Source of the DNA: Oscillospiraceae bacterium
GTDB lineage: Bacteria > Bacillota > Clostridia > Oscillospirales > CAG-382
DNA length: 64,000 nucleotides
Direction: 5' to 3'
NCBI GenBank assembly: GCA_015065165.1
Contig: SVQU01000006.1
Coordinates: forward strand, 19,128-83,127
Shown here: one piece after another, positions 5,554 to 63,997 of the stretch
Numbering within the stretch: position 1 is the first letter of the stretch
Layout of the letters: each line of letters begins with the position of its first letter
Program-made: the position numbers and the translations under genes
Notes under the pieces: generated by a model
The model's database searches: none
Told to the model about the DNA's origin: nothing
Seen by the model: the letters and a program-made list of their open reading frames with translations, nothing else

Positions 5554-5850
5554 TCAACCTTTCTGTTTGCTGTCGACGTGGATGAAATCCTCTACGAGAA
5601 TACGCAGAAGCTCATCGCGGTCGATTTTGGAAATTATTGCGCGAGAGTTGTTGTAGTTTGTGATATACGTAGGATCTTCGGAAATGATATAACCAACAAT
5701 TTGGTTTATGGGGTTATATCCTTTCTCAACAAGGGAATCGTACACCGTTTGAAGCTGTACGCGCAATGACTCCTTATTTTGTTCTTTAACCGAGAACATT
5801 ATAGTTTTTTGCTTTTTATCCACCGGTTTCTTTTTATCCTGCATTTTCAA
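5554..5850 (-). CDS. ireB: IreB family regulatory phosphoprotein
   Basis: LQTVYDSLVEKGYNPINQIVGYIISEDPTYITNYNNSRAIISKIDRDELLRILVEDFI matches the IreB/DUF965 pattern. Confidence 0.88.
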   Translation of the reverse strand: MKMQDKKKPVDKKQKTIMFSVKEQNKESLRVQLQTVYDSLVEKGYNPINQIVGYIISEDPTYITNYNNSRAIISKIDRDELLRILVEDFIHVDSKQKG

Positions 5851-5939
5851 CCCTCCTTAATAGTCTTAACAAAAGTTGTTCTTTTATTATACACCAAACT
5901 TTTGTTCTTTGCAAGAGTTTTTTAACATTTTAAAGCATT

Positions 5940-8324
5940 TTAAGAGCGAAGCACTATTCCCTGCTCTTTTTCGAGCTTTTTCAATATTTTATTTACGCCT
6001 GCATCGGCATCTTCATCGGTCATAGTTTTATCCGCAAGACGGAACACCAATCTTACCGCAACGCTCTTTTTGCCTTCTTCAACGCCCTTACCGCTGTATA
6101 CATCGAAAACAGAAGCGCTTTCGAGAGATTTGTTTGCATAAGAACGAATATCTGCCAAAAGCTTTGCCGCTTCGTGATTTTTATCGCAGATAAGCGCGAT
6201 ATCACGCTCCATAGCGGGATATACGGGAAGCGGGATATAGCTTCTTTCGGTTTTAACCGAACCCAAAAGTGCTTCGGTATAAACCATTGCCGCACACACA
6301 CCGCGAGGTAAATCAAAGTTTTCGCAAACGAGAGGATGGATTTCGCCGATTCTGCCCACAACGGTTTCACCAACAAAAATATCGGCGCAACGACCGGGGT
6401 GGAAGGAAGGATCATCCGAAACAGCAACGTAGTTTCTTGCACAAATATTCAATCTGATAAACAATGCTTCTGCATCGGCTTTGATATCATAAAATCCGCC
6501 GCAATCGGGGGTGAAGGCAAAGCAAAGTGTTTTTGTTTCATCCGAAAGGTCGCCGTTACGACGGTAGATTGTCATAATTTCGGACATACGGCATTTTTCA
6601 ACCTTACGGTTTACGTTGCGAGACAATACCTCCAACATAGAGGGCAACGGATGAGTACGCATTACCGAGGTATCCTCACCGAGAGGATTGATAAGGCGGA
6701 TATAATCGCGAAGGTCGCTATCCTCGGGGAGGTTAATTTTATCAACTGCGTTAGGCGAAACGAAGGAATAGGTACAGCATTCGCAATAGCCCAAGCCCGC
6801 CATTGCATCGTTAATGCGGTAACGGAACGCCTCGTGGGGTGTTCTGCCGCCCAAATCCGCTGCGCCACGGAACATTGTAGGTTCGATATTATCAAAACCG
6901 TACAAACGAACAACCTCTTCGGCAATATCGGCGGTATTGATGATATCGCTTCTGTAAGGAGGTACGGAAAGACCGCCCTTACCGTCGGCGATAAGTTCTA
7001 CCGACGCAAGAATTTTATCCATTTCCTCGTTGGAAATATCAGTACCCAAAAGTGCATTAATCTTTTCGGGGTTATAAGCAACGGTACGTTGGGAAATATC
7101 GGCATAATTAACGTCGATAATACCCTCCACAATTTCACCGCATCCCAAAAGGGTAACCAATTCTGCCGCGCGGTCTACTGCGGGAAGAGTATTGCACGCG
7201 GGCAAGCCCTTTTCAAATTTTGCCGAGCTATCTGTACGCAAGCCGACAGATTTTGAGGTCTTACGGATATTTTCTCTGGCGAAGTTTGCGCTTTCAAACA
7301 CAACGGTGGTTGTATTTTCGGTGATTTCGCTGTTTTCACCGCCCATTACGCCAGCCAAAGCAACTGCACGGCTACCGTCGGCAATAACGAGCATATCCGA
7401 AGTTAAGTTACGTTCAACACCGTCCAACGTAACGATGGTTTCGCCCTCGTTAGCGTTACGAACGTTGATTTCACGGCTCTTGATATATTCATAGTCAAAA
7501 GCGTGCATAGGTTGACCGTATTCCAACATAACGAAGTTGGTGATGTCAACGATATTATTGATAGGTCTTACACCTGCGGCGCGAAGCTTTGCTCTGAGCC
7601 AAAGGGGCGAAGGGCCGATTTTAACGTTTTTAACAACCCTTGCGGTATAGCGGGGGCAAAGCTCTTTGTTATGAATATTTACACTGATATAATCGCTTGC
7701 CTTTTTATCTGACGCAATTTCAGTAACCTTGGGTTGAGGAATATTTACCTTTGTACCAAAGGTTGCCGCAACTTCGCGGGCGATACCTATATAAGAAAGG
7801 CAGTCGGGGCGGTTAAAAGTAAGTTCAAATTCAACAACAGTGTCGTTAATCTTGCATACTTCTTTAATATCGTCGCCCAGATTACATTCTTCCTGAAGGA
7901 CAAAGATACCATCTTCGATTGCATAAGGAAAGTCATTTACGGAAAGACCGAGCTCGCCGAGAGAGCAAAGCATACCCTGAGAGGGAACTCCGCGGAGTTT
8001 ACCGTTTTTAATAGTCTTTCCTCCGGGGAGCTTTGCGCCGTCAAGACAAACGGGAACAACATCCCCTGCCTTTATGTTCTGAGCACCGGTAACTATTTGC
8101 AATTTTTCTTCTTTGCCAACATCAACCTGACAAATTATAAGGTGGTCGGAATCGGGATGAGGTTCGGTTGACATAATTTTACCAACCACAACCTTTTCTA
8201 TATCAGAACCGGTGATGCTATAGCCTTCTACCTTTGTACCTGTCATAGTCATGGCTTCGCAGAACTCTTTTATATCATCAGGCACGTTTACATAATCTTT
8301 TAACCAATTAAGTGATACTTCCAT
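5940..8324 (-). CDS. pheT: Phenylalanine--tRNA ligase subunit beta
   Basis: MEVSLNWLKDYV start, tRNA-binding domain (PHPDSDHLIICQVDVG), B3/B5 and C-terminal FDX-ACB-like domains; adjacent to pheS. Confidence 0.97.
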   Translation of the reverse strand: MEVSLNWLKDYVNVPDDIKEFCEAMTMTGTKVEGYSITGSDIEKVVVGKIMSTEPHPDSDHLIICQVDVGKEEKLQIVTGAQNIKAGDVVPVCLDGAKLPGGKTIKNGKLRGVPSQGMLCSLGELGLSVNDFPYAIEDGIFVLQEECNLGDDIKEVCKINDTVVEFELTFNRPDCLSYIGIAREVAATFGTKVNIPQPKVTEIASDKKASDYISVNIHNKELCPRYTARVVKNVKIGPSPLWLRAKLRAAGVRPINNIVDITNFVMLEYGQPMHAFDYEYIKSREINVRNANEGETIVTLDGVERNLTSDMLVIADGSRAVALAGVMGGENSEITENTTTVVFESANFARENIRKTSKSVGLRTDSSAKFEKGLPACNTLPAVDRAAELVTLLGCGEIVEGIIDVNYADISQRTVAYNPEKINALLGTDISNEEMDKILASVELIADGKGGLSVPPYRSDIINTADIAEEVVRLYGFDNIEPTMFRGAADLGGRTPHEAFRYRINDAMAGLGYCECCTYSFVSPNAVDKINLPEDSDLRDYIRLINPLGEDTSVMRTHPLPSMLEVLSRNVNRKVEKCRMSEIMTIYRRNGDLSDETKTLCFAFTPDCGGFYDIKADAEALFIRLNICARNYVAVSDDPSFHPGRCADIFVGETVVGRIGEIHPLVCENFDLPRGVCAAMVYTEALLGSVKTERSYIPLPVYPAMERDIALICDKNHEAAKLLADIRSYANKSLESASVFDVYSGKGVEEGKKSVAVRLVFRLADKTMTDEDADAGVNKILKKLEKEQGIVLRS

Positions 8325-58804: not shown

Positions 58805-58936
58805 GGGTGTAATGAAATCCTTGTTGAGGTTAAATATAACAACATCATCTATACTATTCTCTTTTCACTCTTATCTTTTATCCGGGAACGACAATTTTAG
58901 AGAAGAGAGAAGAACGAAAAGTGAAAAGAACAAAAA

Positions 58937-58970
58937 GAAACGACAACCTTCTGTCGAAAATTGTCGTTTC
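58937..58970 (-). terminator. Terminator hairpin of tRNA-Leu
   Basis: GAAACGACAA...TTGTCGTTTC with T-run on the minus strand. Confidence 0.75.
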
Positions 58971-58974
58971 TTTT

Positions 58975-59061
58975 TGGTGCCGGTGATCGGGGTCGAACCG
59001 ATACGGTATCGCTACCACTGGATTTTGAGTCCAGCACGTCTGCCAATTCCATCACACCGGC
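58975..59061 (-). tRNA. tRNA-Leu(CAA)
   Basis: Minus strand GCCGGTGTGATGGAATTGGCAGACGTGCTGGACTCAAAATCCAGTGG...GGTTCGACCCCGATCACCGGCACCA; long variable arm and encoded CCA. Confidence 0.95.
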
Positions 59062-60747: not shown

Positions 60748-61108
60748 GGAACGTCGAGGACGCCGTTCCCTACACGGTTATTGGGCGAGAACGGGCGATT
60801 CGTGAATCGCCCCTACGGCTCGGGATGACAGGACGGGGAGGGTTCGCGGATGACCCGTTTTTTTCAAGAATTGTAGGGACAGGCGTCCTCGACTGTCCGT
60901 AAAAACGGCGGGAGTAGAACCCCCGCCCTACGGTGGAATCGGTGTGGTATCGCGTTAAGGTGAGATTTTTACGTATAGGTTACATTACGGGCGGTCGAGG
61001 ATGGCATTCACTACAGGGATGTTGGGTGAAAACGGAACGTCGGGGACGCCGTTCCCTACACGGTTATTAGGCGAGAACGGGCGATTCGTGAATCGCCCCT
61101 ACGGCTCA
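60748..61108. repeat. Cluster of palindromic CTAC-suffix units including an ~80-bp direct duplication
   Basis: 60748-60773 and 61034-61059 GGAACG-TCGRGGACGC-CGTTCC-CTAC, inverted unit 60873-60898, degenerate unit 60989-61014, plus GGGCGATTCGTGAATCGCCCCTAC twice and GGCGGG..CCCGCCCTAC. Confidence 0.9.
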
Positions 61109-62681: not shown

Positions 62682-63578
62682 TTAGCAATACATTAGTGAT
62701 TGGGTATTATCCTCGGAATATTCGATTTCTTCGGAAATTATGCTTGCCAAAACCGATATTTCCTGCAAGGTTTTTGCCTTTTGATTGCAGATTAGCGAAG
62801 CCAACAGGCTTTCGCAGAACAAACAGAAGGACAGACGGGAGGTAAAATCCTCATTATCAAAGGCTTCTGTACAATGGCGATAAATAAAATATGCCAATGC
62901 TCTCTCTAAATATTCATCTACACCAAAGGGGCATTTTTGGGAAGAATAGGTTAGGAACAAAGCCTTATGAGAATTATCAAGATACTCCAAGGAATCGATT
63001 ATTTTAAGCCAAAAGGTATCGTCATAGGTTTCTATTTTATATTTCTGTTTAATCATTTCGATTTTTGTTTTGTAATCGAAGGATTGGTTTTGCAATATTT
63101 CGTATATTTTCTTACGTTCTTTACGACCGTTAAAATTAATTAATTCATCGGTGGCACTGTCTTCTCCGATTTCTTCCATAACGTCATAGTTTTGAGAAGA
63201 AAGAATGATTCGCGCCGCCTCTCTGCAGGACATGCCCAACCCTATTTCTGCCACGTCTGTAAAATTATAAAATCTCGGATGTTCACGGCAGATATCACAA
63301 AGATAGCCTTCGCCCGCATTGAGGATGATTTTACACAAGCCGTTTTCATCGAGATGAGGACATCTGTCGCGGTCGCAAAGCTTAAAATGAGGTGTTTCTT
63401 CCCAAGAGATGCTTTCTTTTATATTTGAAGCGTAGCCGTTTTGTAGGTTTTGGTATTTATTGAGGGTGGTTTCATCAATATCTATTTCCCAACCGATGCA
63501 ACAGCTATGGTCGCATTTATCGGCAATACATTTGAATTTTTTATAATATGCGGGGGCGTAAAGCTTCATAATTTTCAC
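62682..63578 (-). CDS. FliB-like (flagellin lysine-N-methylase) Cys-rich protein
   Basis: FKCIADKCDHSCCIGWEIDID...CPHLDENGLCKI...CDICREHPRFYN. Confidence 0.8.
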   Translation of the reverse strand: MKIMKLYAPAYYKKFKCIADKCDHSCCIGWEIDIDETTLNKYQNLQNGYASNIKESISWEETPHFKLCDRDRCPHLDENGLCKIILNAGEGYLCDICREHPRFYNFTDVAEIGLGMSCREAARIILSSQNYDVMEEIGEDSATDELINFNGRKERKKIYEILQNQSFDYKTKIEMIKQKYKIETYDDTFWLKIIDSLEYLDNSHKALFLTYSSQKCPFGVDEYLERALAYFIYRHCTEAFDNEDFTSRLSFCLFCESLLASLICNQKAKTLQEISVLASIISEEIEYSEDNTQSLMYC

Positions 63579-63681: not shown

Positions 63682-63711
63682 AAAAAAGACTTGCATACGC
63701 AAGTCTTTTTT
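63682..63711. terminator. Rho-independent terminator-like hairpin
   Basis: AAAAAAGACTTGC-ATAC-GCAAGTCTTTTTT. Confidence 0.75.
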
Positions 63712-63788
63712 CCGCCTATGGGCTACAAAAAAGATATTTTTGCAGTTTTACGTATGAATTTGAACTCTTGCATATCCGTTCGTTTTTT

Positions 63789-63961
63789 AGTGATATTCCG
63801 ACTTCGTCGGAGTGATATTACTTGCTTTGCTCGTAGTGATATTGCTCCACTTCGTTCCGCAGTGATATTATATTCGCCATTAACTGCCGAAGGCAATATC
63901 ACTCGGCTTTAGCCGAATACCACTGCGAAGCAATATAACTCGCTGTAAGGCGAATATAACT
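63789..63961. repeat. Opposed array: 4 x AGTGATATT then 4 x AATAT(C/A)ACT-like, with intervening mini-hairpins
   Basis: AGTGATATT at 63789, 63811, 63835, 63861; AATATCACT 63895, AATACCACT 63916, AATATAACT 63932 and 63953. Confidence 0.9.
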
Positions 63962-63997
63962 GAAAACGACAAGTTTCTGTCGAAACTTGTCGTTTTC
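63962..63997. terminator. Perfect 16-bp stem hairpin closing the right-edge array
   Basis: GAAAACGACAAGTTTC-TGTC-GAAACTTGTCGTTTTC. Confidence 0.7.

What the first reader, a model, noticed from the sequence alone, without database searches (positions are those of the whole stretch)
63789..63997. Opposed AGTGATATT / AATATCACT array with mini-hairpins: predicted stacked multi-branch cruciform
Four exact AGTGATATT blocks (63789, 63811, 63835, 63861) face AATATCACT, AATACCACT, AATATAACT, AATATAACT (63895, 63916, 63932, 63953). Blocks alternate with small palindromes, e.g. CCGAC-TTC-GTCGG, TGCC-GAA-GGCA, CGGCT-TT-AGCCG, TGC-GAA-GCA. Pairing left blocks with right blocks gives a ladder of ~9-bp stems with side hairpins at each rung, closed externally by a perfect 16-bp hairpin at 63962-63997. 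Block sequence is conserved while hairpin arms vary, arguing for structure or protein-binding selection. I know of no described family with exactly this architecture.
Basis: partly seen in the sequence, partly recalled or inferred. Interest (0 to 1): 0.8.

Follow-up and report, generated by a model that had tools for sequence, protein, structure and literature searches.

The report
Hairpin-array mobile element beside a tRNA
The strange ladder of facing hairpins is a small mobile DNA element: an unexplained 'Gut-1 RNA' is one arm of it, complete copies carry the gene for a mysterious 'ribosomal-intron' protein (S23), and copies settle right behind tRNA genes and in transcription terminators, which suggests what both the orphan RNA and the orphan protein are for.

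Summary
In detail: eight 9-nt linkers face each other around mini-hairpins (fold z = -9). The 16-bp hairpin does not close the ladder; it is a terminator beside it. The object is not undescribed: its right arm, minus strand, is Rfam RF01706 'Gut-1 RNA' (51 bits), an orphan family previously known only from human-gut metagenomes. Gut-1 is one arm of a larger element: terminator hairpin, A arm (4 hairpins), centre, B arm (3 hairpins). Roughly 20-40 copies occur per genome in many clostridial families. Both the A/B linker pairing and a long-range stem covary strongly. The element is mobile: a copy fused to one family's own tmRNA is 97% identical to a copy in another family, while the tmRNAs are 69% identical. 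Copies sit immediately 3' of tRNA/tmRNA genes or inside terminator loops. Of 40 sampled S23/23S_rRNA_IVP (PF05635, Avd-like) genes, 28 lie directly behind such an array. Solo copies, like the window's, are S23-less deletion derivatives. Elsewhere in the phylum, S23 genes flanked by facing repeats sit in 23S rRNA (classical IVS) and RNase P RNA. No Y1 transposase or reverse transcriptase is found in this genome. Best reading: a non-autonomous S23-family insertion element targeting structured-RNA genes; chemistry unknown.

The parts
63962..63997 (.). Bidirectional terminator-like hairpin GAAAACGACAAGTTTC/GAAACTTGTCGTTTTC, the outer (A) end of the element and directly 3' of a tRNA-Gln(TTG) gene that lies on the next contig (C28, minus strand)
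   Evidence: perfect 16-bp inverted repeat; tRNA-Gln at L003 125-200 minus; the same hairpin sequence precedes the array at other tRNAs and in other genomes
63886..63961 (-). A arm (four mini-hairpins, linkers AGTTATATT, AGTTATATT, AGTGGTATT, AGTGATATT): the Gut-1 RNA match
   Evidence: RF01706 51.3 bits over cut-off 50 at 63891-63962 minus
63949..63957 (-). outer strand of the long-range stem P0 (ATATTCGCC on minus strand); also usable by local hairpin 1
   Evidence: P0 in 30 elements: 99.3% paired, 9 of 10 pairs with double changes, covariation 0.823 vs 0.243 shuffled
63870..63885 (-). centre of the element; 63870-63878 is the inner strand of stem P0 (GGCGAATAT on minus strand)
   Evidence: sequence
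63789..63869 (-). B arm: three mini-hairpins and four linkers, AGTGATATT on plus / AATATCACT on minus, facing the A arm
   Evidence: weak Gut-1 match 63771-63847 plus, 27.7 bits
63712..63788 (-). element tail after the B arm, conserved in other solo copies (GAACGGATATGCAAGAGTTCAAATTCATACG...TAGCCCATAGG)
   Evidence: shared with G000:C22 copy and with copies in genus and other families
63682..63711 (.). second terminator-like hairpin (AAAAAAGACTTGC/GCAAGTCTTTTTT) at the distal end
   Evidence: 13-bp perfect inverted repeat; tandem copies show terminator-element-terminator order
58856..58969 (-). a second, hairpin-less solo element of the same class: terminator plus facing short-repeat array directly behind tRNA-Leu (58978-59061 minus)
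   Evidence: sequence; the matching array precedes an S23 gene in L041; terminator 91% like the one at 63962

Best explanation
The feature is a solo, protein-less copy of a mobile insertion element. A complete element reads: bidirectional terminator hairpin, A arm (4 mini-hairpins joined by a 7-9 nt linker), centre that pairs back to the outer end, B arm (3 mini-hairpins joined by the complementary linker), promoter, gene for an S23/23S_rRNA_IVP protein (an Avd-like four-helix bundle that forms pentamers), often followed by an accessory gene. SHOWN by computation: array plus S23 gene is a recurrent unit; solo copies are S23-deleted derivatives; the element moves horizontally between families; copies sit immediately 3' of tRNA/tmRNA genes (bringing their own terminator) or in the loop of an intrinsic terminator; linker ladder and long-range stem covary; related S23 elements lie in 23S rRNA and RNase P RNA. 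INFERRED: the ladder forms in supercoiled or single-stranded DNA (or in a transcript); the S23 pentamer recognises the repeated linkers and hairpins of its own element; the complex picks hairpin-forming sites of structured-RNA genes as targets, and host replication/repair enzymes complete the copying. Solo copies would be mobilised in trans by S23 from a complete copy. The self-supplied terminator makes insertion behind a tRNA harmless.
For: Copies: 33 Gut-1 matches in the own genome, many as facing pairs on opposite strands; 42 of 60 relatives carry it and none of 14 control genomes at E<=1e-5. Mobility: the copy directly behind G047's own tmRNA is 97.3% identical to a copy in G005 (another family), while their tmRNAs are 68.6% identical. 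Within the own genus the tmRNA 3' end is occupied in G021 and G022 and empty in G000, G005, G012, G018 and G020, with conserved upstream synteny. Target: 17 elements in G000 and G012 begin within about 60 nt of a tRNA 3' end on the same strand, against about 0.03-0.04 expected. Protein-gene copies lie between the arms of a terminator (L242, L250, L007, L017, L235). S23 partner: 28 of 40 S23 genes, taken by S23 score and not by Gut-1, have the 4+3 array directly upstream; the other 12 mostly show facing short repeats. Facing 7-mers occur in 50% of S23 upstream regions against 3.7% of 2994 control windows. Deletion derivatives: solo L005 and S23-coding L400, same genome, are 99.2% identical over 118 nt of the arms, and the sequence after the S23 stop reappears directly after the promoter in L005; L225 and L405 agree. 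Linker co-change: 27 of 28 elements; 70 exact complementary matches against 7.7 permuted (maximum 23). S23 similarity tracks linker similarity (Mantel r 0.58, permuted maximum 0.25). S23 identity: PF05635, TIGR02436, PDB 2rld. S23 genes inside 23S rRNA (L435, L439, L442, L446) and RNase P RNA (L441, L443).
Against: No target-site duplication or nucleotide-exact empty site was found. No recombinase or polymerase was identified: Y1 and RVT_1 are absent here, other transposase families were not screened, and S23 has no known catalytic activity. All genomes are assemblies of uncultured bacteria, several incomplete, so a missing gene could lie in a gap. Most solo copies have no S23 gene near them. 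Linker co-change could reflect homogenisation or protein binding rather than base pairing. In the window's own copy several rungs mismatch.
Confidence: 0.78

Rival explanations
1. Gut-1 is what Rfam says: a stand-alone host non-coding RNA with three tandem hairpins, acting in trans.
For: RF01706 matches above its cut-off; covarying stems.
Against: Rfam's 77-nt model covers one arm only; both arms plus a long-range stem co-vary. The array follows directly after a strong terminator and before the next promoter, so the Gut-1 strand would hardly be transcribed. 20-40 dispersed copies and 97% identity across families with 69% identical tmRNAs fit mobile DNA.
Confidence: 0.06
2. A REP/BIME-like repeat moved by a RAYT (Y1 HUH) transposase.
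For: Extragenic palindromes in inverted pairs, often behind terminators.
Against: No Y1 transposase in G000 (97% complete) or in G005, G012, G018, G020, G039, G047, G059, which carry 19-42 matches each; no GTAG foot at the hairpins.
Confidence: 0.03
3. A host-useful bidirectional terminator/insulator behind tRNA genes (BIME-like gyrase or supercoil sink), dispersed by recombination and kept for that function.
For: Position between terminator and next promoter, strong tRNA/tmRNA preference, terminator hairpin on the outer end, covarying structure.
Against: Only about half of tRNA units carry it, and the tmRNA site is occupied in some congeners and empty in others; recurrent S23 gene; high cross-family identity. 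Could be a secondary benefit, not the origin.
Confidence: 0.08
4. A retroelement: a structured RNA copied by a reverse transcriptase (DGR- or group IIC-like), with S23 playing the Avd role.
For: S23 is homologous to Avd (PMC10053308); DGR homing needs a DNA hairpin/cruciform, likened there to group IIC targeting (PMC3240598); the terminator target resembles the group IIC preference; solo copies keep a promoter-like sequence in the tail.
Against: RVT_1 is absent from G000 and most rich carriers; no RT gene seen near S23 in the loci inspected.
Confidence: 0.12

Closest known systems
Gut-1 RNA, Rfam RF01706 (Weinberg 2010, PMC2864571)
   Same: The A arm matches the model over its full length above the cut-off; same GUGAAAU-type linkers and tandem hairpins
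   Different: Described as an isolated 77-nt sRNA from human gut only; here it is one half of a two-armed element, found in many ruminant-gut Clostridia, mobile, tRNA-/terminator-targeted and linked to S23
Intervening sequences (IVS) of 23S rRNA with S23p ORF (Coxiella, Leptospira; PMC4990558)
   Same: Same protein family (PF05635), inverted terminal repeats, sporadic/horizontal distribution, insertion in helix loops of a structured RNA gene; the authors call it selfish and cite the idea that the ORF serves mobility
   Different: Insertion 3' of tRNA/tmRNA and in terminators instead of inside 23S rRNA; 4+3 hairpin arrays both upstream of the ORF instead of simple terminal repeats; multicopy with solo derivatives
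Diversity-generating retroelement accessory protein Avd (bAvd)
   Same: S23/Avd fold family; DNA hairpin/cruciform at the target is required (PMC3240598)
   Different: No reverse transcriptase, no template/variable repeat pair here
Group IIC introns
   Same: Target preference for the hairpin of intrinsic terminators (from my own knowledge)
   Different: No reverse transcriptase in this genome and no ribozyme domains; element only about 340 bp
REP/BIME with RAYT
   Same: Multicopy extragenic palindromes in facing pairs
   Different: No Y1 transposase, different foot sequence, much more elaborate array
MITEs
   Same: Solo copies are internally deleted derivatives of a coding element
   Different: No transposase-type terminal repeats or target duplication identified

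Membership tests
Gut-1 RNA (RF01706) | covariance-model score above gathering cut-off 50 bits | tested here: met
   51.3 bits at 63891-63962 minus; 13 matches over cut-off in the genome
Gut-1 RNA (RF01706) | expressed as an independent ncRNA | not testable with these tools
   no RNA-seq available
23S rRNA IVS / S23 element | encodes an S23/IVP protein | tested here: met
   not in the window's solo copy, but in complete relatives: 28 of 40 sampled S23 genes carry the array; PF05635 5e-29
23S rRNA IVS / S23 element | inserted in a loop of 23S rRNA | tested here: not met
   this element is behind tRNA-Gln; other S23 genes of the phylum are in 23S rRNA
23S rRNA IVS / S23 element | inverted repeats forming a stem | tested here: met
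23S rRNA IVS / S23 element | excised from the transcript by RNase III | not testable with these tools
   experiment needed
REP/RAYT | genome encodes Y1 (PF01797) transposase | tested here: not met
   0 matches in G000 and in most rich carriers
REP/RAYT | GTAG-type tetranucleotide at the hairpin foot | tested here: not met
   linkers are AGTGATATT/GTGAAAT and variants
DGR / group II retroelement | reverse transcriptase (PF00078) in the genome | tested here: not met
   0 in G000; present in only 17 of 60 relatives
MITE | internal-deletion derivative of a coding element | tested here: met
   L005 vs L400, L225 vs L405
MITE | target-site duplication | tested here: inconclusive
   terminator arms flank the element, but no clean duplication or empty site was found

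The most novel reading that the evidence does not exclude
S23/IVP proteins define a class of mobile elements without recognised transposase, integrase or reverse transcriptase. They are recognised through facing arrays of short linkers (with or without mini-hairpins), home to hairpins of structured-RNA genes (23S rRNA, RNase P RNA, tRNA, tmRNA, terminators), and carry accessory genes like cassettes. Gut-1 'RNA' is the recognition ladder of this class.
Probability: 0.45. Interest if true: 0.95.

Novelty: new variant of a known kind. Interest (0 to 1): 0.85.

Why it matters
It joins two orphans. Gut-1 RNA has lacked a context since 2010, and the S23/IVP protein family, known since the 1990s from ribosomal intervening sequences and related to the DGR factor Avd, has no assigned function. 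If S23 recognises its own linker array, the long-standing suggestion that IVS ORFs serve mobility becomes testable with defined substrates. It also explains why contigs of these genomes break at tRNA genes, and it points to a tRNA/terminator/RNase P insertion niche that could carry accessory genes between gut bacteria. No held paper mentioning this link was found, but preprints and most subscription papers are not in the library.

Tried and rejected
RAYT/Y1 transposase: absent. Reverse transcriptase: absent from G000 and most carriers. Phages and plasmids as vehicle: one distant phage-record hit, none in plasmids; viral-contig pattern hits were mostly coding repeats or chance. L105, two arrays 2.2 kb apart: no transposase recognised among the ORFs between. 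Bacillus (L088), Rubripirellula (L112) and Prevotella (L101) pattern hits look like unrelated tandem repeats. L004 as a terminator insertion: its apparent 3' arm is shared tail sequence, so it is not counted. Orthologous empty site at tRNA-Ala and tmRNA: sequence downstream of these RNAs is too divergent for a nucleotide-exact empty site. Literature: 10 searches; none linked S23 with Gut-1, tRNA or RNase P.

Full report
WHAT IS THERE. The finding's coordinates are right. Read on the minus strand (A to B), the order is: hairpin 63997-63962; linkers AGTTATATT, AGTTATATT, AGTGGTATT, AGTGATATT alternating with four mini-hairpins; centre TGGCGAATAT; then linkers AATATCACT x4 with three mini-hairpins; a 77-nt tail; and a second terminator-like hairpin at 63711-63682. 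The stretch folds far better than shuffles in RNA and DNA (z about -9). The window ends at a contig end. Its last 127 bases recur exactly at the start of contig C28, which continues into a tRNA-Gln gene, and C22 shares the left part at 92%. I infer that the contig broke because the element is repeated.

A KNOWN NAME FOR HALF OF IT. cmscan gives RF01706 Gut-1 at 63891-63962 minus (51.3 bits, cut-off 50) and weakly the other arm. Gut-1 was proposed in 2010 as a probable non-coding RNA from 'human gut only' (PMC2864571). In the own genome Gut-1 matches come repeatedly as facing pairs on opposite strands, so Rfam's 77-nt model is one arm of a two-armed element. It is frequent in relatives (42 of 60 genomes, up to 42 matches each, several families of the order). 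The linker pattern hits well over 100 contigs in named genomes, mostly gut Clostridia assemblies, many from ruminants.

ANATOMY AND COVARIATION. In 30 elements, including the window's (alignment A1), the linker ladder A2:B3, A3:B2, A4:B1 is 93.2% paired (shuffled 80.0 +/- 1.0), with double changes at 16 of 20 pairs and 87 double-change cells (30.9 +/- 3.7 shuffled); slid versions pair 28-55%. The long-range stem P0 between the outer end and the centre is 99.3% paired (69.9 shuffled), with double changes at 9 of 10 pairs. P0's 5' strand also forms local hairpin 1, so the two exclude each other. RNAalifold's own structure has double changes in 23 of 28 pairs. Linkers within one element are alike, so the register of the ladder cannot be fixed: RNAalifold pairs A3 with B4. 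Elements use different linkers (GTGAAAT, ATGAAAT, GTGATAT, GTTATAT, GTGATGT, GTGAAGT, ATGATGT, GCTAAAT and others), and the facing arm carries the complement in 27 of 28 S23-linked elements; exact matches 70 against 7.7 permuted. I assigned the linkers by eye from the arrays, so this test is partly circular; the alignment counts are not.

IT MOVES. The copy on G047's contig directly behind G047's own tmRNA (L251) is 97.3% identical over 185 nt to a copy in G005 of another family, and 94% to G012, while the tmRNAs of these genomes are only 68.6% identical. Tandem copies occur (243-bp unit, three times behind tRNA-Val in L221). Within the genus the tmRNA 3' end carries an element in G021 and G022 and none in G000, G005, G012, G018 or G020, with conserved synteny upstream and, apart from close pairs, none downstream.

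WHERE IT SITS. In G000 and G012, 17 elements start within about 60 nt downstream of a tRNA, same strand; chance expectation is about 0.03-0.04. Among 60 fetched regions about half start behind a tRNA or tmRNA. The terminator between CCA end and array is shared between copies at different tRNAs in different genomes, for example GAAAACGACAGATTCC... at tRNA-Gln (G012) and tmRNA (G047, G055), so it appears to travel with the element. Copies behind protein genes can lie between the two arms of an intrinsic terminator, such as AAAAGGACGGGAATG [349 bp] CATTCCCGTCCTTTT in L242; also L250, L007, L017, L235.

THE PROTEIN PARTNER. Some arrays are followed by a short gene of family PF05635 (23S_rRNA_IVP, S23; TIGR02436; PDB 2rld). 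I then sampled by S23 score alone: one best locus from each of 20 genomes (L386-L405; 11 of 20 with the 4+3 array directly upstream) and the next 20 in rank (L406-L425; 17 of 20). The 28 of 40 are counted by eye from the printed sequences. The others mostly show facing arrays of 7-9 nt repeats without hairpins. As an automatic measure, facing 7-mers are in 50% of S23 upstream regions against 3.7% of control windows. 16 of 40 lie behind an intact tRNA detected within 420 nt. Solo L005 and S23-coding L400 in the same genome share 118 nt of arms at 99.2%, then L005 lacks the gene and resumes with the sequence that follows the S23 stop (80% over 60 nt); L225 and L405 do the same. The window's copy is such a solo element.

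THE WIDER FAMILY. In a phylum-wide sample S23 genes again often lie between facing repeat arrays. Four are in 23S rRNA, the classical IVS setting, and two are inside RNase P RNA. IVS are regarded as selfish elements whose ORF was proposed to serve mobility (PMC4990558). S23 is homologous to Avd (PMC10053308), and DGR homing needs a hairpin/cruciform in the target DNA (PMC3240598). Common to all sites is a hairpin or a helix end in a structured-RNA gene or terminator.

HOW IT PROBABLY WORKS. Inference: the S23 pentamer binds the repeated linkers of its own element, perhaps on the extruded ladder, and delivers the element to hairpin-forming sites of RNA genes; host enzymes finish the copying. 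Y1 transposase and reverse transcriptase do not seem to be needed in the host genome. S23 similarity tracks linker similarity (Mantel r 0.58), which fits co-travel and possibly recognition. What is not shown: exact ends, target duplication, the enzyme, and any transcript.

LIMITS. Most genomes are assemblies of uncultured bacteria and absence of a gene may be a gap. The identity argument does not rest on binning, because L251 has element and host tmRNA on one contig. The literature library is partial.

Noticed in passing
window 58856-58969 (minus): Second solo element of the same class, hairpin-less: terminator plus facing array TTCTTTTCACTTTTCGTTCTTCTCTC / GATAAGAGTGAAAAGAGAA directly behind tRNA-Leu; its twin in L041 precedes an S23 gene.
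   Followed up: partly
L441 and L443, 1229-2003 (minus): S23 gene between facing repeats inserted in the bacterial class A RNase P RNA (insertion next to the conserved ACAGAAACAAACCGCC, P12 by my reading); I know of no report of S23 elements there.
   Followed up: partly
L238, L239, L230, L281, L283, L289, L290, L297, L394: A different small element at tRNA/tmRNA 3' ends: native terminator, then reverse complement of the tRNA T-arm, about 100 bp with a hairpin, then a duplicated T-arm/acceptor 3' end down to CCA. It has inserted between tRNA and Gut-1 array in several loci.
   Followed up: no
L400, L405, L406, L416, L418, L420 and others, 26-116 nt after the S23 stop: Diverse accessory genes follow S23 co-directionally (GNAT by Pfam; AraC-, phosphatase-, nucleotidyltransferase-like by eye), like cargo of a cassette.
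   Followed up: partly
L006, L021, L024, L225 (inside the element): A short hairpin repeat (CATGGGGTCCCCGCAAAAC..GTTTTGCGGGG) is inserted within the array at hairpin 1 or the centre: a second hairpin-loving repeat family.
   Followed up: no
window 61031-61104: REP-like palindromes GGGCGATTCGTGAATCGCCCCTAC and GGAACGTCGGGGACGCCGTTCCCTAC (GTAG foot on the other strand), also in L029; no Y1 transposase was found in this genome.
   Followed up: no
L068 near 5850-6100: In an Akkermansia (Verrucomicrobiota) assembly an S23 gene is also preceded by a facing hairpin array (linker near GGTTATATC / GATATAACC), so the class may cross phyla.
   Followed up: partly
window 62682-63578 (minus): Neighbour gene matches flagellin lysine-N-methylase FliB (NF038110, 171 bits).
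   Followed up: yes
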